A stretch of DNA of 50,456 bases from a virus. Each line of letters starts with the position of its first letter. Positions within the stretch are counted from its first letter, which is position 1. The position numbers and the translations under genes are program-made. Where the stretch lies: the IMG/VR virus record IMGVR_UViG_3300044800_000405, positions 1 through 50,456 of that record; one strand, 5' to 3'. The notes under the pieces were generated by a model. That model saw only the letters and a list, made by a program, of their open reading frames with translations. It made no database searches and had not been told where the DNA came from. Below are positions 3,696-48,112 of this stretch, piece by piece.

Positions 3696-5138
3696 ATGAC
3701 CTGTGTCCTTCCCGTCCATGCCGGCGATGGTTTTCTCCTGCTCAACCTCCTGCGCTGGCTCAAACAGCTAGGGCCATGTCCCGGCCATTCCGCGCTTATA
3801 GTGGCGGATTGTTCTTTGTCCTGGCCCGTCGCCCAAACCGCCGTCGGCCTGGCCAAAGATATTTTTGATGACACCGTCTTCATCACCAACCACCAGACCG
3901 TTTCCGGCTGGGTGCCCGGCAGCAATTCTCTCTGGCAAACCGCCGCCCAACATTGTTCCACACAGAACATTGATGGCTGGTTGTGGCTTGAACCAGACGC
4001 CGTCCCCCTCCGCCCCGGCTGGCTCGATGTCTTGGATGGGGCGTGGCAGAATACCGTCGCCGATTTTCTCTCCGCCCTTTACCACTGCACCCGTGCCGAT
4101 TGTCCTGCCATTATGATGACCGGCATTGCTGTTTATCCCGCCAACGCCATTGATTTTTTCAAGCCTGTGGCCGAAGCGTTCGACATTCAACTCTCCCGCT
4201 CCGCCATTGACTACGTTCAGGATACGCCACTCATCCATCAATTTTGGGGTCAGCCCGGTTTGGCGCCCACTTTTCGTAATACCCTAAACGGCGCACCCCG
4301 GCACGCCTTCACCCTGTTCCAGCTTGATCCCGCCGCCGTCATTTTCCACCGCAACAAAGACGGCTCCCTCATCGAACTTTTACGTTCCCAACTTCCTCAA
4401 CCCTCAACCCTCAACCCTCAACTATTGGTCGTCCTGCCCGTTTGTTCCAAAGACTCCGACCTCATGCTCAAGTGTTTGGGGTGGATTGCCCAACTCGATG
4501 GCCAGAACCCATTCGACTGTCTCATTGCGCACGATTCCACCCTGGGTCCCGTCCGCCTGGCGCCCCTGCGCGCGGCGGCCAGCCGCGCCTTCCGCACCGT
4601 GCAGGAATTCACCTATCCCCGCCCCGTGCGCGAGTCTCACCCGGATGCCGCCAACCATGCCTTCGCCTGCACCGCCCGGCACATCGCCCAAGTCCTGCAC
4701 CGCCCCTGGCTGTGGTTTGAGGCCGACTGTGTTCCGCTTAAACCCAACTGGCTGCCCACGCTTGATCTGGAGTACCGCAACTGTGGCCAGCCCGTCATGG
4801 GGCCGGGCGTGCCGGACCTGGGCCATTTCAACGGCACCTCCATTTACCCGGCGGACTTCCCCGCGCTTTCACCCCGCGCCATGAGCGTGCCCCTGGGCCA
4901 GGCCTTTGACACCTACATGACGCCCGACCTCGTCAACCGCTCGCACGATTGTTCCCGGCTGTGGTGTCACGCCTGGGGCCTGGTGGATGGCCGTCTTCAT
5001 CCGCACACCGGCCCGGCCCCTCACTTTTCCTCCACCCTTTGCGTGGACCAATGGCTCCCGCCGGACGCCGTCATTTTCCACCGCTGCAAAGATGGCTCGC
5101 TCATAGACCAGCTTCGTGCTAAAAAAACGCAGCCATGA
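3696..5138 (+). CDS. Tandem-duplicated glycosyltransferase-like protein
   Basis: The product has 480 residues in two homologous halves. Each has an acidic motif (LEPDAVPLRPGWL near 98-110, FEADCVPLKPNWL near 341-353) resembling the DxD metal and nucleotide-sugar site of GT-A enzymes. Each also ends alike (AVIFHRNKDGSLI near 214, AVIFHRCKDGSLI near 458). The halves are joined by a Pro/Ser/Thr linker coded by CTCAACC heptads (4396-4423). The likely role is sugar transfer to DNA, virion or host surface; the acceptor is unknown. It overlaps the next transferase by ATGA. Confidence 0.6.
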   Translation: MTCVLPVHAGDGFLLLNLLRWLKQLGPCPGHSALIVADCSLSWPVAQTAVGLAKDIFDDTVFITNHQTVSGWVPGSNSLWQTAAQHCSTQNIDGWLWLEPDAVPLRPGWLDVLDGAWQNTVADFLSALYHCTRADCPAIMMTGIAVYPANAIDFFKPVAEAFDIQLSRSAIDYVQDTPLIHQFWGQPGLAPTFRNTLNGAPRHAFTLFQLDPAAVIFHRNKDGSLIELLRSQLPQPSTLNPQLLVVLPVCSKDSDLMLKCLGWIAQLDGQNPFDCLIAHDSTLGPVRLAPLRAAASRAFRTVQEFTYPRPVRESHPDAANHAFACTARHIAQVLHRPWLWFEADCVPLKPNWLPTLDLEYRNCGQPVMGPGVPDLGHFNGTSIYPADFPALSPRAMSVPLGQAFDTYMTPDLVNRSHDCSRLWCHAWGLVDGRLHPHTGPAPHFSSTLCVDQWLPPDAVIFHRCKDGSLIDQLRAKKTQP

Positions 5139-5977
5139 ACACTGAAATTTTTCTTTGCACCCACGCCAAGGATTTCCCCTGGCTCAAATACTGTTTGCGC
5201 TCCATCGCCAAATTTGCCACCGGCTTTGCCGGGGTTACCATCGTCGTGCCCCTCGCTGACTTCCTCTTGCTGCAAACCCTCGTGGAGGAAACCGTGCCCG
5301 ATTTGGGCTTTCACGTTCAATGTTTCACGGGGGAGGAATGGCCCGGCCTGGGCATGCTCTGGCACATGAATGAAATTATGCACGCCGATTGTTATTGTCC
5401 CGGCGCCGATTTCATCGCCCATCTGGACCCAGACTGTGTTTTCACCGCTCCCGTCAGCCCGGCCACCTTCATGGTTTCTTCTCCCTCAACCCTCAACCAT
5501 CAACCCTCAACCCTCCAGCAGCAGCCCATCCTGCGTTTTGAAAAATTCTCTATCATCGGCCTGCGCCACCCCCCCGTCCTGCGCTGGCAGGAATGCACCG
5601 CCCGCTGCCTGCCCTTCCCCGTCGAGAACGAGACCATGCGTTGCCACCCATCGGTCTATCACCGCGCCCTCTACGCCGCCGCGCGCAATCAAATGGTGCT
5701 CAAGACCGGCCAGCCCGTGCCGGCTTACATCCGCTCCTGCCAGAACACTTTTCCCCAGGGCTTTTGTGAGTTCGTCACCCTGGGCAACGTGGCCCTCCAA
5801 CTGTTTCGCCACCTGTATTTCCCCATCGAACAATTGAACGACCACGTCATCCCGTCCAATCATCTGCAACAGTTTTGGTCCCATGGCGCGCTGGATCAGC
5901 CGCAACCAATTTTTGTGCTCGGCGAACAGAAAGTCGTCGTCCCCATCGAGATGATTAAACAACTCGGCCTCGCATGA
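5135..5977 (+). CDS. Glycosyltransferase-like protein (DUF6492-like)
   Basis: The product has 280 residues. It opens with a GT-A-like pattern (MNTEIFLCTHAKDFPWLKYC) and has HLDPDCVF near residue 97, a DxD-type metal site. A heptad-repeat linker (SPSTLNHQPSTL, near residue 116) sits inside. It overlaps the methyltransferase gene by ATGA at 5974. The overall pattern reminds me of the DUF6492 family, not certain. Acceptor unknown. Confidence 0.6.
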   Translation: MNTEIFLCTHAKDFPWLKYCLRSIAKFATGFAGVTIVVPLADFLLLQTLVEETVPDLGFHVQCFTGEEWPGLGMLWHMNEIMHADCYCPGADFIAHLDPDCVFTAPVSPATFMVSSPSTLNHQPSTLQQQPILRFEKFSIIGLRHPPVLRWQECTARCLPFPVENETMRCHPSVYHRALYAAARNQMVLKTGQPVPAYIRSCQNTFPQGFCEFVTLGNVALQLFRHLYFPIEQLNDHVIPSNHLQQFWSHGALDQPQPIFVLGEQKVVVPIEMIKQLGLA

Positions 5978-8249: not shown

Positions 8250-8629
8250 GGGACTGGTCTTTTCTAAACCGCCACCGCATCCGGCAGGGGCCATTGGCGT
8301 CCGCCGATGCCCAGGGTTTCAAGGGCGCATTTAGTTTTCCCCTGCCCGGCGAACCCCGCCGGGTTTATTGCATCATCAGCGACGGGCTGGGCTGGGAACA
8401 TGTCTCCGTTTCCTTTGGCCACAACCATGCAATCCCATCGTGGCTTGTCATGGAAAAAGTAAAGAACCTTTTTTGGAATGACGATCAGTGGGTAATTCAG
8501 TTTCATCCACCGGCCAAAGAATACGCCAACAATCACCCCGGCTGTCTGCATCTCTGGCGGCCCCTTGGTAAAGAATTTCCCACGCCGGATTCCATCCTGG
8601 TCGGGTTGAAAGGGGTCGCTCTTTTTTAG
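8246..8629 (+). CDS. Phage protein, DUF7694-like
   Basis: The product has 127 residues. The C-terminal two thirds (WEHVSVSF, MEKVKNLFW, VIQFHPPAKEYANNHPGCLHLWRP) match my memory of a widespread small phage domain, DUF7694. Its function is not known to me. The conserved His, Pro, Asn and Trp suggest a binding pocket. Its TAG stop lies in a TTTAGCC repeat just before the bL35 promoter. Confidence 0.6.
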   Translation: MRDWSFLNRHRIRQGPLASADAQGFKGAFSFPLPGEPRRVYCIISDGLGWEHVSVSFGHNHAIPSWLVMEKVKNLFWNDDQWVIQFHPPAKEYANNHPGCLHLWRPLGKEFPTPDSILVGLKGVALF

Positions 8630-15761: not shown

Positions 15762-17072
15762 ATGGACGCCCCTACCACCACCGCACCCGCACCCAGCACC
15801 CAGCCCAACCCGCCCGGCCCCAACATGGCCGAATCCTTTGCCGGCTTCGATGCCCTCGTGGCCGCCCCCGAATCTTCTCCCTCGCCCCCCGCAGGGGGAG
15901 AGGGCCGGGGTGAGGGGCAGGCATCCGACGCTCAACCCTCAACCACCAACCCGCAACCACCAACCAAGCCCGCCCCTGACACCAAACCGACAGACGAAGG
16001 GAAGCCCCCCTCAACCCTCAACCCTCAACCCTCAACCAAGCCCGCCAAAGCCGCCACCCTGCGCGAAGAACTCGACCGCACCCGCACCGAAGCCGCCGAC
16101 TGGCGCGGCAAGTACGAGAAATTGCAGGCCGACCTTTCCAAGCCCAAACCAGACCCGGAAAAGGATCAGCTCCTCAAAGACCGCGAGACCTGGAACAAAT
16201 CCCGCGCCGATCTTGAAAATGAACTCAAGTTCGCCAACTACGAGCGCAGCCAGGAATACAAAGACAAGTACCAGCAGCCATTTTTGAAAGCCTACGAGTC
16301 CGCCCAAAAACTCGTCAGCGCCCTTACCGTCAAGGAACCGGATCAGAAAGACCAGTACGGCGAAGTCACCGAGCCGGGCAAAACCCGCAAGGGCACGGAG
16401 GCAGATTGGGACGCCCTCATGGCCATCACCGACGAGAACGCCGCCAGCGAATTCATTGCCGAACATTTTGGCCACTCCGCCGCCCGCGTCACCGTCCTGC
16501 GCGACAAGGTCCTGGACCTTCACGGCCAGATGCGCGCCGCGGTCGAGGACTTCCGCAAGCAGGCCGGCGAGCGCGAGACTCAAATGCGGGGCACCCTGGA
16601 AAAACAGCAGAAAGAAATCAGCACCCGCTGGCACGCGGCCAACGCCCATGCCGCCCAAAAGTATCCGCAGTATTTCGCGCCCGACCCTGCCGACCCCAAG
16701 GCCACCGCCCTGTGGGAGGCCGGCACGCGCCTCACGGACCTCGCCTTTGGCGTGCTGGACCCTGCCGATGTTTCCAAGCTCCCGCCCGCCATCCAGTCCA
16801 AGTTTGTCAACGGCCAGTTGCCGCTCGCTGACCGCACCTTGTTGCACAGCGCCATCCGCAACCGCGCCGCCGCCTACGACCGCCTCGTTTACAAGCTCGC
16901 CATGAGCGAGGCCGCCAAAAAGGAACTGGCGGACAAACTGGCCGGCTTTGAAAAGTCCGAGCCGGGCCGGGGCCAGGCCCGCAAGGTCGAAACTTCCGGC
17001 AAGCCAGGCACGCCCTCCACCCTGGACGAGGTGGATTCCGCCTTCGACCAACTCGCCGCTGCCAACGGCTAA
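15762..17072 (+). CDS. Scaffold-like coiled-coil protein
   Basis: The product has 436 residues. The first 100 are Pro/Thr-rich and disordered, with one palindromic repeat read as PSPPAGGEGRGEG and two heptad blocks read as STLNPQPST. Residues 105-300 are charged coiled coil (LREELDRTRTEAADWRGKYE, RETQMRGTLEKQQKEIS). The C-terminus ends SAFDQLAAANG. Length, composition and position after the portal gene suit a procapsid scaffold. The capsid gene, however, is 20 kb away. The repeats fall only in the disordered part. Confidence 0.5.
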   Translation: MDAPTTTAPAPSTQPNPPGPNMAESFAGFDALVAAPESSPSPPAGGEGRGEGQASDAQPSTTNPQPPTKPAPDTKPTDEGKPPSTLNPQPSTKPAKAATLREELDRTRTEAADWRGKYEKLQADLSKPKPDPEKDQLLKDRETWNKSRADLENELKFANYERSQEYKDKYQQPFLKAYESAQKLVSALTVKEPDQKDQYGEVTEPGKTRKGTEADWDALMAITDENAASEFIAEHFGHSAARVTVLRDKVLDLHGQMRAAVEDFRKQAGERETQMRGTLEKQQKEISTRWHAANAHAAQKYPQYFAPDPADPKATALWEAGTRLTDLAFGVLDPADVSKLPPAIQSKFVNGQLPLADRTLLHSAIRNRAAAYDRLVYKLAMSEAAKKELADKLAGFEKSEPGRGQARKVETSGKPGTPSTLDEVDSAFDQLAAANG

Positions 17073-17083
17073 AACCAACCATT

Positions 17084-17113
17084 ATGTTTCAGCCTTTAGC
17101 CTTTAGCCTTTAG
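17084..17113 (+). promoter_or_regulatory. Leader mini-ORF MFQPLAFSL
   Basis: ATG 17084 to TAG 17111-17113, eight bases before the ATG at 17122. Fourth exact copy of the peptide. Confidence 0.5.
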
Positions 17114-17121
17114 CCCTTTTT

Positions 17122-17854: not shown

Positions 17855-18179
17855 ATGCCCCCACCTGATCCCCCTGCTTGACCGTGTCATCATCGAGCCG
17901 ATTGCCGGCCCGGAAAAAATCGGCGCCATCTTCGTGCCCGACCAGGCGCGGGAGAAGCCGGATACCGGGCGTGTGCTCGCGCGCGGCCCTGGCCGCGTGT
18001 CCGAGCACGGCACCCGCATTCCCATGTCCGTTGAGGTGGGCGACCAGGTGGTTTTCAACCGCTACTCCGCCAGTCAAATCCGGGTGGCTGGGCGCGACCT
18101 CTGCCTGGTCCACGAGTCCGATATTAACTGCATCGTAAAAACCCCCTCCACCCTCAACCCTCAACCCTCAACCAAATAA
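17844..18179 (+). CDS. groES: GroES-type co-chaperonin
   Basis: The product has 111 residues. LIPLLDRVIIEPI is the classic Cpn10 N-terminal strand, followed by a mobile-loop region (GPEKIGAIFVPDQAREKPDT), GRVLARGPGR and VEVGDQVVFNRYSAS. The family caps the GroEL barrel. Phage versions (T4 gp31) help fold the capsid protein. The last ten residues (PSTLNPQPST) come from a CTCAACC heptad block. No GroEL is in the window, so it would work with the host chaperonin. Confidence 0.85.
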   Translation: MNDKCPHLIPLLDRVIIEPIAGPEKIGAIFVPDQAREKPDTGRVLARGPGRVSEHGTRIPMSVEVGDQVVFNRYSASQIRVAGRDLCLVHESDINCIVKTPSTLNPQPSTK

Positions 18180-18522: not shown

Positions 18523-18597
18523 TGCGGGGTAGAACAGTGGTAGTTCGGCAGCCTCATAAACTGCTTGTCGGTGGTTCGATTCCACCCTCCGCAACCA
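18523..18597 (+). tRNA. tRNA with CAT anticodon (Met or Ile2)
   Basis: All arms can be drawn. The acceptor TGCGGGG pairs with CTCCGCA, the D stem is GAAC/GTTC, and the anticodon CAT lies at 18555-18557. The T arm is GGTGG/CCACC with loop TTCGATT, and CCA is coded at 18595-18597. The anticodon stem has one C-A mismatch. The first pair is T-A and there is no GGG/CCC anticodon stem, so it is not a standard initiator. It could be elongator Met or, if lysidine-modified, Ile(AUA). Confidence 0.88.
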
Positions 18598-18647: not shown

Positions 18648-20141
18648 ATGAGAATGTCCCTAAGAAAGCATCGCCGTGTGCGGGCCAGCGCCGCCAAAAC
18701 TCAACGCCGCTACATGCGGCTGGCGGCGAAGGTGGTTAAAAATGTTTTTGTCCCGGCCCAAAAAGGAACCCCCCTGGGACCACCCGCCCCACTGGTCCAG
18801 AAACTTCCCCTGCCCTCGTCCGTCGCGCCTTCCGTCCCTGCCGTCCCTTCGGCCACCCCCGCGCCCGGAAAAAGTTTGGTTTGCAGCCAGTGCGGCACCG
18901 CCCCCAAAACCCCCCTTATCGGCCGTCTCCCGCGCGGGTGGAAAAGGATGGAGGCCGAGGTCGTCTGCCCCAAATGCTGGCATGACAAGTTTTTCCTCCG
19001 CGCCATCACCTTTGCCGTGTCCGGCCCCATCGTAAAAGAGGACTGGCCGGCCTTGCGTGAAGCCTTGCAGGCAGGCTGGGCGCAATCCACCCGGCTCTGC
19101 AACTGGGCCGTTACCGAACTCGCCAAGGCCGATGTCACCCGCCAGCCAGACATGGCCAAACTGCCCAAGTTCGCCCTGCCGTATTTATACCCGCCCGCGC
19201 GCAAGTTGTTCCCCGGCCTGGCCAGCCAAACGGTCGTGGCCCTGCTCAACACCGTCCAGCGCAAGTATGCCCAGACCCGCTTTGAACGCATCTGGCTTGG
19301 GAATGTCTCCCTGCAAAGCTACAAGTACCCCGTGCCCGTGCCCGTGCCCGCTGCCGGCTATTCCTGCGAACTGATGAAGCGCGGGCCGGACCGCGTGCCC
19401 GTTGTCCATCTGCGCATCGGCGACCAGCGTTTTTCCTTGTTATTGCGTGGCGGCGTTGAATGGGCGCGCCAGTTACATGACTTCACCCAAGTGGTGCATG
19501 GCCACGGTTTGCAGTGCGAGGCCGCCATTGGCCGGCGGCGCGTGACGGACTCCGATACCTGGAACGGCGTGGCCGAGCGTCAGGCCGGCGGCGGCCAGCG
19601 CCAGCATTACCGCATCATGCTCAAGTTGGTTGCGTGGCTGCCCCGCAAACCTGTTGGCAAAAAACAGAAACCCAAAAACCTCACCTTGAATACCGGCCAA
19701 GACTTTTTCTGGCAGGCTGTTCTGGATGGCGGCCAGCCTTGGATTTTACATGCCGATCATGTCCGGGGCTGGGTGTTAAGCCATGCCCACCGGCTGCAAC
19801 ATTGGAGTGACGACCAGAAGTTTGAGCACCGGCGCAACGCGCGGGCGCGGCAGCCCCTTAACGAACACCGCGCAGCGGCGGCGCGCAAGCAAAACGACCG
19901 GCTCGATACTTGGTGTCATACTGCCGCTGCGCTTTTCACCCAATGGTGCTCCCGCCAGCGTGTAACACGGGTGCAATATGATGAAACCGGCGGCCATTTT
20001 CTTGAAAGTTTTCCTTGGCACCGGCTTAAAACCCTGTTACAAGAGAAACTGAACGTGGCCGGAATTGACTTTGCCGAAGTTGCGAGCGCCACAGTGCCGG
20101 AGGAATCCAGCACCAGCGCTCGCCAAAAGACAAAGTCCTGA
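18648..20141 (+). CDS. Compact Cas12/TnpB-like CRISPR effector, RuvC-III missing
   Basis: The product has 497 residues. A basic N-terminus (1-40) and Pro-rich linker lead to a zinc ribbon (CSQC 79-82, CPKC 107-110). Next are ALREALQAGWAQSTRLCNWAVTEL (136-159) and other helices like the recognition part of compact type V effectors. RuvC-I-like WILHADHVRGWVLSH gives D370. RuvC-II-like TRVQYDETGGHF gives D445/E446. After GIDFAEVASATVPEESSTS the protein stops, where relatives have a zinc ribbon and the RuvC-III Asp. It is therefore possibly a binder and not a cutter. A CRISPR array begins 119 bp downstream. Family assignment is by pattern and context. Confidence 0.75.
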   Translation: MRMSLRKHRRVRASAAKTQRRYMRLAAKVVKNVFVPAQKGTPLGPPAPLVQKLPLPSSVAPSVPAVPSATPAPGKSLVCSQCGTAPKTPLIGRLPRGWKRMEAEVVCPKCWHDKFFLRAITFAVSGPIVKEDWPALREALQAGWAQSTRLCNWAVTELAKADVTRQPDMAKLPKFALPYLYPPARKLFPGLASQTVVALLNTVQRKYAQTRFERIWLGNVSLQSYKYPVPVPVPAAGYSCELMKRGPDRVPVVHLRIGDQRFSLLLRGGVEWARQLHDFTQVVHGHGLQCEAAIGRRRVTDSDTWNGVAERQAGGGQRQHYRIMLKLVAWLPRKPVGKKQKPKNLTLNTGQDFFWQAVLDGGQPWILHADHVRGWVLSHAHRLQHWSDDQKFEHRRNARARQPLNEHRAAAARKQNDRLDTWCHTAAALFTQWCSRQRVTRVQYDETGGHFLESFPWHRLKTLLQEKLNVAGIDFAEVASATVPEESSTSARQKTKS

Positions 20142-20260
20142 ACGGCAGTATTTTGAGTGACCGATACACTCAGCGCGGTTGCGCCTTGGTACGCTTGCCG
20201 GCCCTGGCTCTCGCGGAACACCGTTTAAGTAGCGGGGATTACGCTGTTTACAGCCCGGCC
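20142..20260 (+). promoter_or_regulatory. Probable CRISPR leader
   Basis: The 119 bp between the effector stop and the first repeat hold no convincing gene. A short inverted repeat GCTGTTTACAGC (20243-20254) ends seven bases before repeat 1. The best-conserved repeats are on this side and the degenerate ones at the far end, as expected if this is the leader. Confidence 0.45.
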
Positions 20261-20869
20261 CCCGCAGCGACTAAAATTAAAGCTGTCGGCTTCGGGGGTT
20301 CCGTGTCAAACCGTTGCTTCTTTTGCCAGAAAGCCCGCAGCGACTAAAATTAAAGCTGTCGGCTTCGGGCGATGTCTTGTAGCGAAAGAGTTTAACACCC
20401 GACTCCCGCAGCGACTAAAATTAAAGCTGTCGGCTTCGGGAGTGTCCTGAAATAATTCCACGAGGTCGAAAGCCCCCCGCAGCGACTAAAATTAAAGCTG
20501 TCGGCTTCGGCTTCGCACCGCGAAATCAAGAAGCTGGACAAGCCCCCCGCAGCGACTAAAATTAAAGCTGTCGGCTTCGGGCGCACGCCGTTTGTGGAGA
20601 GCCGAACTGAATTCCTGCCCGCAGCGACTAAAATTAAAGCTGTCGGCTTCGGGGTGAAACGCGATGTTGACACCGGCAACAAACTTATTCCCGCAGCGAC
20701 TAAAATTAAAGCGGTCAGCTTCGGGTCGCCACCAGTAGAGAGTTTTGGAGAGGAAGAAATCCCGCAGCGACTAAAATTAAAGCGGTCGCCTTCGGGTTGC
20801 CTGTTGGGTTGACAGGATGACCACAACCCGCCACCCGCAGCGACTAAAATTAAAGCGGTCAGCTTCGGG
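20261..20869 (+). CRISPR. CRISPR array, nine 36-bp repeats, eight spacers
   Basis: Repeats start at 20261, 20334, 20405, 20476, 20546, 20618, 20690, 20761 and 20834. Each begins CCCGCAGCGACTAAAATTAA and ends AGCTGTCGGCTTCGGG. Spacers are 34-37 bp and unrelated to each other at full length. Repeat 4 has a changed last base; repeats 7 and 9 read AGCGGTCAGCTTCGGG and repeat 8 AGCGGTCGCCTTCGGG. The repeat folds into one long hairpin: CCCG with CGGG, AGC with GCT or GGC, GAC with GTC, and an AT-rich loop. No second copy of the repeat core is seen outside the array, so no tracrRNA is evident. The array ends 17 bp from the terminase stop. Confidence 0.97.
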
Positions 20870-20886
20870 CTTACAATCACAGATTC

Positions 20887-22728
20887 CTAAAACGTCAGCG
20901 CATGTTGCTTCCGTTGCTCCCGCAACTTGTCCTGCCGTTTCATAAACCAGTCCCAGGTGGAATTCTCCGCCGGCACATCCGCGCCCAGGCGTTTGATCTT
21001 GAACCCGCGTTGCCGCGCCCCTTCCAGCGCAATCGCCAGCCAGTCAAACAGGTCCGGGCTTTTGCCCATCCGCTCCTTGAGTTCATCCTTCGGCTCCACT
21101 TCAATCTTGTCGCCCGCCACCGTCTTGTACTCGCGCCAGCAGCCCTCGGCCATCACGTCCTCCGGCAACTCTCGCATCTGGCCGCTCTCTATCGTCTCCC
21201 GCACGCTAAACCACATCTCCGTTATGAACTTGCTGTAATGTTCCTCGCACCGTTTCAGCCGGCGCCGCCCGTCCTTTTCAGCTACCCATAAATCCCAACG
21301 CACGGGCCGCGTCGTCGTCCGCGCCCCGGCGTCCACCGGCACCGGCGGGTTAAAGCCAAACTTCCGCGCAAAGGCAAACCCCACCGTCCCCTTGCCGAAT
21401 GAATCGTAAAAACAATTGTCCGGCGCTATCCCGTTGGCTTCCAAATCCTCCTTCACCAGGTCCGCTATCTGGTCTTCCGGCGGCAGGGCCGGGTTCACAA
21501 TTATTTTCAATATGCGCGGCGGGTTCACCCGCAAAATCTGCGTGCCCTCGGCACTCTCCCCAAACTCTATCCATCCGCCCACGCAGCGGTCCCCGCCGCC
21601 ATAGGCCGGGTCCACGCTGTAAATGCGCGGGCGCGGTTTGCCCGCCCACACCGCGCGCTCGTGCGCCCCGTGCAGCCGGCACAATTGCCGGGTTATCACG
21701 CGCGAATGTTCCAGCCCTATCCGCATCCGGCCCATGATTTGCGTCTCATACTCCGGCGAGTTTTTCCCGTAATCATGCGCGATAATCCGCTCATAATCGT
21801 GCCCAATCAGTCCCTTGTATTGGTCTTGTGGCTGGTCAAAGTTCGGACTGTCCAGCCCAATCAAATTCACGCACACCCCGCCCAGCAGTTTGATGGGCCA
21901 CACCTGCGTCTTTTCCAGCCCGTCCACCGCCGGCCAGCCCTCCAGCGGCTCGCCCACAATGCCCAGTTGATCGTTCGGGTCGTGGCGCGGATTCCCGCTC
22001 CCAATCACCTTCAACCCGCCCGCGCCCGTGTTGCTCCGCATGTTTGGCAGGCAGCCCAGGAACGTCGGCGCCATGAACTGCAATTCGTCGCACTGAAACC
22101 GGAACCGTTTTTGTTTTATCCCCGCAAAGTTCCCCAGCCCCACCCATTGCTTGCCCACATAGCACGCCTTGCAGAAAATTCCCTTGCGCAGGTCCCGCGC
22201 GTCCTCGCTGTCGGCGGCGCGGTCGTCCGTCGCAATGCGCTGTTTGTATTCAATCAAGTGTCCCGCCAGCCAGGAATAATTTTCCCGGCCCGCCTTCCAT
22301 AAACTTTTCATCTCGCCCCACACGGCGTCTTCCAGTTTGTCCTTGGTCGTGCTGCTCACCAGCACCGCCGTTTCATCCGGGTAACACCAGTAATCAATCA
22401 GGCTGAACTCGCTCGCGTGGCTCGTCTTCTGGCTCGAAGCCGCCCCCATCAAAATCGTGATGCTGTTCTTGATTATCTCCCGGTAAATCAACTCGCTCCA
22501 ACGGTGGCAGTAACGGTCCGGCCAGATCAATTTGCGCGCGTTCAAATAATGCCGGAGCAACTCGCCTTCCCCCTCAGACTGTGGACTGTGGACTGTGGCC
22601 TCTGGACTGTGGACTGTGGACTGTGGACTCAAGACTTTTTTCCACGTCCTCCGTATCATGTTAAACTCCACGGCCAGCGCATCCGGTTTGCGCTGCCATT
22701 TCTGCCCGTATTGGTCCTCGTAAATCAT
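20887..22728 (-). CDS. Large terminase subunit (TerL)
   Basis: The product has 613 residues. The ATPase part has a Walker A-like GAASSQKTS (95-103, Gln in place of the usual Gly before Lys), Walker B FRFQCDELQF (209-218) and coupling-type IGSGNPRHDP (242-251). The nuclease part has IYSVDPAYGGGD (D373), CFYDSFGKG (D442) and SPDLFDWLAIALEG (D559, D562), the three acidic clusters of the RNase H-like fold. It packages DNA through the portal. ACTGTGG repeats code a TVHSP linker near residues 33-50. It is the only large gene on the minus strand and faces the array. Confidence 0.85.
   Translation of the reverse strand: MIYEDQYGQKWQRKPDALAVEFNMIRRTWKKVLSPQSTVHSPEATVHSPQSEGEGELLRHYLNARKLIWPDRYCHRWSELIYREIIKNSITILMGAASSQKTSHASEFSLIDYWCYPDETAVLVSSTTKDKLEDAVWGEMKSLWKAGRENYSWLAGHLIEYKQRIATDDRAADSEDARDLRKGIFCKACYVGKQWVGLGNFAGIKQKRFRFQCDELQFMAPTFLGCLPNMRSNTGAGGLKVIGSGNPRHDPNDQLGIVGEPLEGWPAVDGLEKTQVWPIKLLGGVCVNLIGLDSPNFDQPQDQYKGLIGHDYERIIAHDYGKNSPEYETQIMGRMRIGLEHSRVITRQLCRLHGAHERAVWAGKPRPRIYSVDPAYGGGDRCVGGWIEFGESAEGTQILRVNPPRILKIIVNPALPPEDQIADLVKEDLEANGIAPDNCFYDSFGKGTVGFAFARKFGFNPPVPVDAGARTTTRPVRWDLWVAEKDGRRRLKRCEEHYSKFITEMWFSVRETIESGQMRELPEDVMAEGCWREYKTVAGDKIEVEPKDELKERMGKSPDLFDWLAIALEGARQRGFKIKRLGADVPAENSTWDWFMKRQDKLREQRKQHALTF
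22579..22628. repeat. ACTGTGG heptad repeats inside terL
   Basis: About seven ACTGTGG/CTCTGG units in tandem lie inside the terminase coding region and are read on the minus strand as SPQSTVHSPEATVHSPQS. The repeat falls in a probable loop before the ATPase core and keeps the frame. Confidence 0.7.
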
Positions 22729-22736
22729 GGCTGGCT

Positions 22737-22818
22737 TCCCCCTCTCCTGGGGGAGAGGGCCGGGGTGAGGGCGGTCGTAAACATTTTTTTCAGCCTTTAG
22801 CCTTTAGCCTTTAGCCTT
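22737..22818. repeat. Palindromic repeat plus TTTAGCC repeat in a divergent gap
   Basis: The 148-bp gap between terL and the gene at 22877 holds a CCCTCTCC/GGAGAGGG element (22737-22772) and three TTTAGCC units (22791-22818). A possible promoter follows: TTGCGC at 22834-22839 and TAACGT at 22856-22861, 16 bp apart, with AACGGTAACG similar to the portal box. Confidence 0.55.
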
Positions 22819-26491: not shown

Positions 26492-26530
26492 ATGACCATT
26501 TTGTTTCAGCCTTTAGCCTTTAGCCTTTAG
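26492..26530 (+). promoter_or_regulatory. Leader mini-ORF MTILFQPLAFSL
   Basis: ATG 26492 reads twelve codons ending FQPLAFSL at TAG 26528-26530, ten bases before the ATG at 26541. It is an N-terminally extended form of the mini-ORF seen at 3662, 15231, 15725 and 17084. Confidence 0.5.
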
Positions 26531-26540
26531 CCTTTTTTTT

Positions 26541-47089: not shown

Positions 47090-48112
47090 ATGCCCAATCG
47101 CATCCTCAAAGCCAGGCTGCGCCAATCCGAACGCTGGAACAAATGTTCCGAGCCGGCGCAAAACCTCTACGTCCGCCTGCTCATGTTGGTGGACGATTTT
47201 GGCCGGTATGAGGCCCATCCCACCCTTCTCGCCAGCGAGGGCTATCCCTATGGCGACCCCGAAGGCCACCCCATGCCCGTCGAGACCGTTACCAACCGAC
47301 TCCAAGAATTGACCGCGCACGACCTGCTTTTCCTTTACCAGGTTGAAGGAAAACCCTACTTGGAATTAACCCGCTGGCAGGAACGCACCCGCCGGGCCAA
47401 CAGCTTTTTCCCTGCCCCCAACCCAACAGACACCAGGCAGACACCAGGTGAACACCAGGCAGACACCAGGCAGACACCAGGTGAACACCAGGCAGACACC
47501 AGGCAGACACCAGGCAGACACCAGGCAGACACCAGGCAGACACCAGGCAGCCGCGCGGCCCTTACGCCTTCGCCTTCGCCTTCGCCTACGCCTACGCCTA
47601 CGCCTTCGCCTTCGCCTACGCCTACGCCTACGCCTACGCCTACGCCTTCGCCCGCGCCCGCGCCCGCGCCCGCGACGGTCGCCGAGTTGGTTTCTTCGGT
47701 TGTTAAAAGAATTGCAGAAAAGACCAAAGACACGCACGCAGATATAAAAAACCTTTTGTGCATCGCCTACAACCGCCCGGAGGACCAGTCTTGGTCTTAC
47801 GTCGAGGAAGCCACCCTGGCTGAAATTGCCCGGCGCCCCAAAGCCTTGGCCGAGGTTAAATTGCTTTTGGACTTCCGGCGCAAGCTGTCCCAGCCCGACC
47901 GCAAGTATTTTCCCCAATCCATTTTGTCCCTGCTCCAAAAATGGGATGAAAAATTGGATGCCTCACGGGGCCTCCAACCCCGCCCCATCAAATCTTCCCG
48001 TCCCTTTGCCCCGCCTCCCAACTCCAGGAAATTTATCCCTTCGGAGAATTTGGGCCGGCAATTCCGCAATCAGATTCAAACCATCATGGCAGAACCAGGA
48101 AAGGCCAAATAA
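47090..48112 (+). CDS. Replication-initiator-like protein with internal repeats
   Basis: The product has 340 residues. The N-terminal 100 (AQNLYVRLLMLVDDFGRYEA, NRLQELTAHDLLFLYQVEGK) resemble the winged-helix start of phage replisome organisers. Residues 112-152 are coded by eleven 11-bp direct repeats, then hexamers code Pro/Ser/Thr/Ala runs to about 198. The C-terminal part is helical (SYVEEATLAEIARRPKALAE). By analogy with lambda O, the repeats might be origin iterons. Role inferred. Confidence 0.55.
   Translation: MPNRILKARLRQSERWNKCSEPAQNLYVRLLMLVDDFGRYEAHPTLLASEGYPYGDPEGHPMPVETVTNRLQELTAHDLLFLYQVEGKPYLELTRWQERTRRANSFFPAPNPTDTRQTPGEHQADTRQTPGEHQADTRQTPGRHQADTRQTPGSRAALTPSPSPSPTPTPTPSPSPTPTPTPTPTPSPAPAPAPATVAELVSSVVKRIAEKTKDTHADIKNLLCIAYNRPEDQSWSYVEEATLAEIARRPKALAEVKLLLDFRRKLSQPDRKYFPQSILSLLQKWDEKLDASRGLQPRPIKSSRPFAPPPNSRKFIPSENLGRQFRNQIQTIMAEPGKAK
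47427..47547 (+). repeat. Eleven 11-bp direct repeats (iteron candidate)
   Basis: Eleven exact-length units CAGACACCAGG, with units 3 and 6 reading TGAACACCAGG, run end to end for 121 bp inside the initiator-like gene. The period is close to one helical turn, so bound proteins would line up on one face. Because 11 is not a multiple of 3 the array reads as an 11-residue protein repeat over 33 bp. Confidence 0.85.
47566..47671 (+). repeat. Hexanucleotide repeat CCTTCG/CCTACG/CCCGCG
   Basis: About seventeen hexamers, first CCTTCG and CCTACG in mixed order, then CCCGCG, code the PSPSPTPTPT and PAPAPAPA linker. This is a simple-sequence tract prone to slippage; each unit keeps the reading frame. 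Confidence 0.8.

What the first reader, a model, noticed from the sequence alone, without database searches (positions are those of the whole stretch)
20297..20833. Spacers enriched for TTGACA, the -35 promoter consensus
Seen: spacer 1 has TGTCAA (20304-20309), spacer 6 TTGACA (20667-20672) and spacer 8 TTGACA (20809-20814); spacer 7 has GCCACCAG like the promoter motif of this genome. By my rough count about 0.1 perfect matches would be expected on both strands in eight spacers. Inference: targets may be promoters, which suits an effector that binds and blocks transcription without cutting.
Basis: partly seen in the sequence, partly recalled or inferred. Interest (0 to 1): 0.8.

Follow-up and report, generated by a model that had tools for sequence, protein, structure and literature searches.

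The report
Phage CRISPR array with dead Cas12f
A virus of bacteria carries a small CRISPR array beside a Cas12f-like protein that has lost its cutting site; the promoter-like letters seen in three spacers are real but weak evidence that it targets promoters, because no target sequence could be found.

Summary
In detail: TTGACA occurs exactly in spacers 1 (minus strand), 6 and 8. For a hexamer named in advance this would be unusual (at least 3 hits in 0.05-0.2% of random draws), but some hexamer recurs in at least 3 of 8 random spacers in 47-62% of draws. Other signs of promoter origin are missing: no enrichment of -10 hexamers or of -35/-10 pairs, no TTGACA in the related array (3 spacers), and GCCACCAG is not a promoter motif here. 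No protospacer was found in phage or plasmid records, in 13 related viral records, or in IMG/VR (exact cores of four spacers only), so promoter targeting remains untested.

The real find is the setting. The array (9 repeats, 8 spacers) follows a 497-aa Cas12f-like effector. RuvC-I Asp is replaced by Asn, RuvC-II Glu by Asp, and the protein ends before the C-terminal zinc ribbon and RuvC-III. A 35% identical homologue in an unrelated virus is degenerate in the same way and also sits beside a repeat array. Effector plus array form a 2.3-kb cassette between a tRNA-Met and the terminase gene; two close relatives have the empty site. Best reading: a phage-borne, non-cutting RNA-guided DNA-binding module, targets unknown.

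The parts
18523..18597 (+). tRNA-Met (CAT) gene directly left of the cassette
   Evidence: ARAGORN and Rfam RF00005; same tRNA next to the empty site in L008/L009
18602..20886 (.). cassette of about 2.29 kb (effector gene + array), absent from the same place in close relatives; ends approximate to a few bases
   Evidence: L008 and L009 run from the tRNA-Met 3' end straight into the terminase 3' end; effector absent from 12 related virus records, some of them fragments
18648..20141 (+). 497-aa nuclease-dead Cas12f-like effector: Cys motifs at residues 79-82 and 107-110; RuvC-I beta-strand LTLNTG (345-350, Asp to Asn348); RuvC-II QYDET (443-447, Glu to Asp445); ends after the fifth RuvC strand, no C-terminal zinc ribbon or RuvC-III
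20142..20260 (+). 119-nt gap between effector and first repeat, probable leader (degenerate repeats lie at the other end); no anti-repeat detected
20261..20869 (+). CRISPR array: 9 repeats of 36 nt, 8 spacers; repeats 7-9 (20690, 20761, 20834) carry variants; each repeat folds as one hairpin pairing its two ends
20297..20333 (+). spacer 1; TGTCAA at 20304-20309 (TTGACA on minus strand)
20370..20404 (+). spacer 2; no protospacer found
20441..20475 (+). spacer 3
20512..20545 (+). spacer 4
20582..20617 (+). spacer 5
20654..20689 (+). spacer 6; TTGACA at 20667-20672; 21-nt exact core in L003 but only 24 of 36 overall
20726..20760 (+). spacer 7; GCCACCAG at 20728-20735
20797..20833 (+). spacer 8; TTGACA at 20809-20814, also readable as a stop/start gene junction (GGT TGA C AGG ATG ACC ACA ACC CGC)
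   Evidence: junction reading is inference
20887..22728 (-). terminase large subunit, right neighbour of the cassette; used to find the phage's relatives
   Evidence: PHROG 2, E=3.4e-12; 12 relatives in IMG/VR

Best explanation
The locus is a two-part accessory cassette in a tailed phage: a Cas12f-like effector that can no longer cut, plus its own CRISPR array. Most likely the array is transcribed rightward from the leader side and processed into crRNAs. The effector uses them to bind matching DNA and hold on, acting as a roadblock to transcription or replication of rival phages or other mobile elements in the host. Shown: array, Cas12f relatedness, loss of the catalytic residues and of RuvC-III, cassette insertion, and a degenerate homologue beside another repeat array. 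Inferred: expression, crRNA binding, DNA binding, silencing, and the identity of the targets. The three TTGACA in the spacers are best taken as coincidence in spacers of unknown origin.
For: Homologue P0003 hits the Cas12f profile (PADLOC 1.1e-13) and the window protein weakly hits Cas12u3/Cas12f (7.7e-4 / 2e-3). A two-sequence profile finds solved Cas12f chains by sequence, 9nzq 1e-5 and 9i8y 1e-3, and weakly the deactivated Cas12f 9n9c (E=0.15; 0.06 from P0003 alone). Both predicted models, from separate runs, return Cas12f structures as all of their top 18-20 matches, E down to 3e-9 and 1.6e-13. RuvC-I Asp is Asn in the window and Arg in P0003, RuvC-II Glu is Asp in both; the RuvC fold of the window protein stops right after its last strand, P0003 has only a helical tail there, and no zinc ribbon or RuvC-III lies in any frame behind the window gene. 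The homologue (35% identity over about 420 aa, no stops) also has a repeat array. Empty site in L008/L009. Precedents for binding-only interference: Cas12m (PMC11013384, PMC10442227).
Against: No protospacer is known, so no target class is shown. No cas1/cas2 in the cassette, so it is unclear how spacers were acquired. No anti-repeat/tracrRNA was found in the window, although Cas12f normally needs a tracrRNA; the L002 array has an inverted repeat copy that could be one. The structure models are of low confidence (mean pLDDT 48 and 55), and the RuvC-I residue assignment comes from the predicted strand order plus eye alignment, not from a solved structure. Only two family members are known.
Confidence: 0.6

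Rival explanations
1. The spacers are chosen to match promoters of a host or rival phage, and the dead effector represses transcription start, as TldR does.
For: TTGACA in 3 of 8 spacers (at least 3 hits in 0.05-0.2% of random draws if the hexamer had been named in advance). TTGACA is about twofold more frequent between genes than inside genes in this phage group (13 against 6.5). TldR proteins, nuclease-dead and phage-encoded, repress from a promoter (PMC13418256).
Against: Hexamer chosen after the fact; some hexamer does this in about half of random draws. No excess of TATAAT-like hexamers (P=0.98) or promoter pairs (P=0.72). Both strands, differing positions. None in the three L002 spacers. 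14 of the window's 24 TTGACA are inside genes.
Confidence: 0.15
2. The effector recruits RNA polymerase or a sigma factor to guide-specified sites, as I recall for dCas12f partnered with an ECF sigma factor.
For: The solved deactivated Cas12f (9n9c/9n9m) is among the matches of both models (E=1.4e-5 and 1.8e-11), and the deposited chain (365 aa) ends at the same point of RuvC.
Against: No sigma-factor gene was recognised; the cassette holds only effector and array. The active Cas12f structures match better than 9n9c. The sigma partnership is from memory, no paper was held.
Confidence: 0.08
3. It is an RNA-guided transposition module of the CasMu-V kind, in which Cas12 lost RuvC-III.
For: CasMu-V effectors are reported inactive through loss of RuvC-III (PMC10910872); the cassette is an insertion.
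Against: No transposase was recognised among the 29 larger window proteins scanned with Pfam, and the cassette has room for none.
Confidence: 0.03
4. The -35-like letters serve the array itself: the repeat core carries TAAAAT, a possible -10, and spacers supply -35-like hexamers, so that crRNAs are started inside the array.
For: Spacers 1, 2 and 4 have a 5-of-6 TTGACA match 16-18 nt before the TAAAAT of the next repeat; 3 such spacers in 0 of 4,000 shuffles and 0 of 10,000 fragment draws.
Against: Found after the fact; the perfect TTGACA of spacers 6 and 8 sit 28 and 30 nt away and do not fit; the L002 repeat has no AT-rich core.
Confidence: 0.07
5. The cassette is a decaying remnant without function.
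For: Broken RuvC, no adaptation genes, variant repeats at one end.
Against: Two homologues at 35% identity both keep long open frames and both keep arrays; the first six repeats are identical apart from one base.
Confidence: 0.07

Closest known systems
Type V-F Cas12f (AsCas12f, OsCas12f, Un1Cas12f1)
   Same: sequence profile and predicted fold; compact size; CRISPR array next to the gene
   Different: RuvC-I Asp and RuvC-II Glu replaced, C-terminal zinc ribbon and RuvC-III absent; no tracrRNA anti-repeat seen in the window
Type V-M Cas12m
   Same: non-cutting type V effector with array, no adaptation genes in the cassette, on a mobile element; H-D-D and N-D-D sites are known there
   Different: Cas12m is about 600 aa and keeps a third catalytic position; here RuvC-III is gone and the closest structures are Cas12f (Cas12m2 ranks far lower)
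TldR (TnpB-like nuclease-dead repressors)
   Same: phage-encoded dead RuvC protein of the TnpB/Cas12 superfamily
   Different: TldR uses a single guide RNA aimed at a flagellin promoter; here there is an eight-spacer array and no known target
Deactivated Cas12f of PDB 9n9c/9n9m
   Same: ends after the fifth RuvC strand; dead site
   Different: no sigma factor or other partner recognised; sequence similarity only marginal (E=0.06-0.15)
CasMu-V effector
   Same: inactivated through loss of RuvC-III
   Different: no Mu transposase here

Membership tests
CRISPR array | several near-identical repeats separated by unique spacers of even length | tested here: met
   9 x 36 nt repeats, spacers 34-37 nt, all different
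CRISPR array | spacers match mobile elements | tested here: inconclusive
   no protospacer found; spacers 3, 4, 5, 7 not scanned in IMG/VR, no spacer scanned in genomes or metagenomes
Type V-F (Cas12f) | Cas12f sequence and fold | tested here: met
   the PADLOC Cas12f profile also rings on well-known genomes, presumably on TnpB, so the PDB matches carry the claim
Type V-F (Cas12f) | intact RuvC D-E-D active site with C-terminal zinc ribbon | tested here: not met
   N/R at RuvC-I, D at RuvC-II, no zinc ribbon or RuvC-III at the C-terminus
Type V-F (Cas12f) | tracrRNA with anti-repeat | tested here: inconclusive
   none found in the window; L002 has an inverted repeat copy at 8405-8439, 30 of 35
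Type V-M (Cas12m) | closest relatives are Cas12m | tested here: not met
   Cas12f structures lead; Cas12m2 at rank 32, E=1.9e-4, for P0003 and not in the 50 listed for P0001
Type V-M (Cas12m) | silences by binding without cutting | not testable with these tools
   needs biochemistry
TldR | single guide RNA downstream of a dead TnpB, target in a promoter | tested here: not met
   multi-spacer CRISPR array instead of a single guide; promoter target unknown
CasMu-V | linked Mu transposase | tested here: not met
   no transposase family among scanned proteins

The most novel reading that the evidence does not exclude
A phage-borne, array-programmed transcription repressor: a dead Cas12f lineage that uses a multi-spacer array to shut off several promoters of host or rival phages at once.
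Probability: 0.12. Interest if true: 0.85.

Novelty: new variant of a known kind. Interest (0 to 1): 0.45.

Why it matters
Non-cutting CRISPR effectors are known from plasmids (Cas12m), transposons (Cas12k, CasMu-V) and prophages (TldR). A dead Cas12f lineage with its own multi-spacer array in tailed phages, carried as a 2.3-kb accessory cassette, would add another route by which phages use RNA guides without cleavage. Whether such effectors are aimed at promoters is a clear, testable question, but the TTGACA count does not answer it.

Tried and rejected
Protospacers: concatenated spacers against 50,697 phage records and 72,556 plasmids; exact cores of spacers 1, 2, 6, 8 in IMG/VR. Hits were cores only: L003 21 nt but 24 of 36 overall, L019-L026 21-23 of 35, judged chance. 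13 related or homologue-bearing virus records. Repeat sequence in IMG/VR: none. Effector and terminase in the genome collection: none, so no host was found. Self-targeting or seed matches of spacers in the window: as expected by chance. Coding-likeness of spacers: more like natural phage DNA than shuffles (P=0.002) but cannot separate coding from intergenic origin. Anti-repeat in the window: none. Literature on sigma-linked dCas12f: not held. The gene behind the L002 effector has no Pfam match.

Full report
What was checked. The array lies at 20261-20869 and consists of nine 36-nt repeats and eight spacers of 34-37 nt.

How unusual it is. For TTGACA named in advance, three or more hits in eight spacers occur in 7 of 3,000 dinucleotide shuffles and in 9 of 20,000 draws of random window fragments. 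But the motif was noticed afterwards. Some hexamer, counted on either strand, is shared by at least three of eight spacers in 47% of shuffles and 62% of fragment draws. Allowing one mismatch on the plus strand, 45 of the 4,096 hexamers (TTGACA included) do as well as TTGACA or better. The count is a mild curiosity, not a strong signal.

Tests of promoter origin. If spacers sampled promoters, -10 elements should also appear. The spacers have slightly fewer TATAAT-like matches than shuffles (P=0.98) and no excess of -35/-10 pairs (P=0.72). In spacers 1, 6 and 8 the place where a -10 would follow TTGACA falls outside the spacer, so the spacers themselves cannot confirm a promoter. TTGACA in spacer 8 can equally be read as a stop/start junction between two genes (inference). 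The related array in L002 has three spacers and no TTGACA. GCCACCAG is not a promoter motif of this genome: outside the array 6 of 7 copies are inside genes. In favour, TTGACA is about twofold enriched between genes in this phage group, so it probably is a -35 element for some of its promoters.

Search for targets. No protospacer was found among phages or plasmids, in 13 virus records including the closest relatives, or in IMG/VR with exact 17-19-nt cores of spacers 1, 2, 6 and 8. The hits of those scans match only the core. Spacers 3, 4, 5 and 7 were not scanned in IMG/VR, and no spacer was scanned in genomes or metagenomes. The negative result is limited.

The effector. The 497-aa protein at 18648-20141 gives weak family hits, but its homologue P0003 in L002 hits the Cas12f profile at 1.1e-13. 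A two-sequence profile finds solved Cas12f chains. The two predicted models, though of low overall confidence, both return Cas12f structures throughout their top matches. The PADLOC Cas12f profile alone is not decisive, since it also rings on 6 of 14 well-known genomes, presumably on TnpB.

Why it should not cut. The RuvC half is the better-predicted part of the window model: three strands, long helices, strand, helix, strand, then the end of the protein. In the first strand the catalytic Asp position reads Asn in LTLNTG, and Arg in the homologue. The second catalytic position, aligned by HMMER to the Glu of Cas12f, is Asp in both. Neither protein has a zinc ribbon or RuvC-III at its C-terminus, and no frame after the window gene supplies them. 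The RuvC-I assignment rests on strand order and eye alignment.

The setting. The terminase found 12 relatives in IMG/VR. In L008 and L009 the tRNA-Met gene is followed directly by the end of the terminase gene, exactly where the window has about 2.29 kb of effector and array. None of the 12 relatives' records has the effector, though several are fragments. Effector plus array is therefore an accessory cassette. L002 is from a different virus, has a different repeat (CTGCGCGCGACCCCGTTTTGAGGGCGCTGCGCAGG), at least three repeat copies, and an inverted copy 30 nt after the last one that could act as an anti-repeat.

Mechanism. The anatomy suits a binding-only RNA-guided module. Cas12m provides the precedent: it protects by binding, and silences both from promoter and from 3'-UTR sites (PMC11013384, PMC10442227). 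Promoter targets are therefore not required. CasMu-V shows loss of RuvC-III in a transposition system (PMC10910872), but no transposase was recognised here.

A post hoc oddity. The repeat core carries TAAAAT, and spacers 1, 2 and 4 have 5-of-6 TTGACA matches 16-18 nt upstream of it; none of 14,000 random draws reaches three. This could mean array-internal promoters, but it was found while looking, does not fit spacers 6 and 8, and is not shared by L002.

Verdict. Observation confirmed; promoter targeting neither shown nor excluded and indirectly disfavoured; the underlying object, a nuclease-dead Cas12f-like CRISPR cassette in phages, is the interesting part.

Noticed in passing
window 17091-17115, 22792-22818, 26508-26535, 4395-4422, 5483-5515, 16008-16037, 18144-18173, 22577-22629: Seven-base tandem repeats (AGCCTTT, CCCTCAA, GACTGTG) recur across the window, many between genes. 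CTTTAGCCT occurs 18 times, all on the plus strand, against 0.2 expected, and is absent from the loci of the close relatives L004-L009.
   Followed up: partly
window 20323-20350, 20392-20421, 20535-20562: TAAAAT in the repeat core with 5-of-6 TTGACA-like hexamers 16-18 nt upstream in spacers 1, 2 and 4: possible array-internal promoters, post hoc.
   Followed up: partly
L002 8405-8439: Inverted, imperfect copy of the repeat (30 of 35) 30 nt after the last repeat of the L002 array, possibly a tracrRNA anti-repeat.
   Followed up: partly
L002 7370-8005: Gene of about 212 aa between the L002 effector and its array, no Pfam match; no counterpart in the window cassette.
   Followed up: no
window 47427-47652: Eleven-base (CAGACACCAGG x 11) and six-base (TACGCC x 15) tandem repeats inside an ORF resembling replication initiation proteins.
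   Followed up: no
window 18882-18977 (P0001 residues 79-110): The effector's Cys-X2-Cys pairs stand near its N-terminus while the C-terminal zinc ribbon of Cas12f is missing; the first pair aligns weakly (about 0-1 bit) to the C-terminal ribbon of Cas12f.
   Followed up: no
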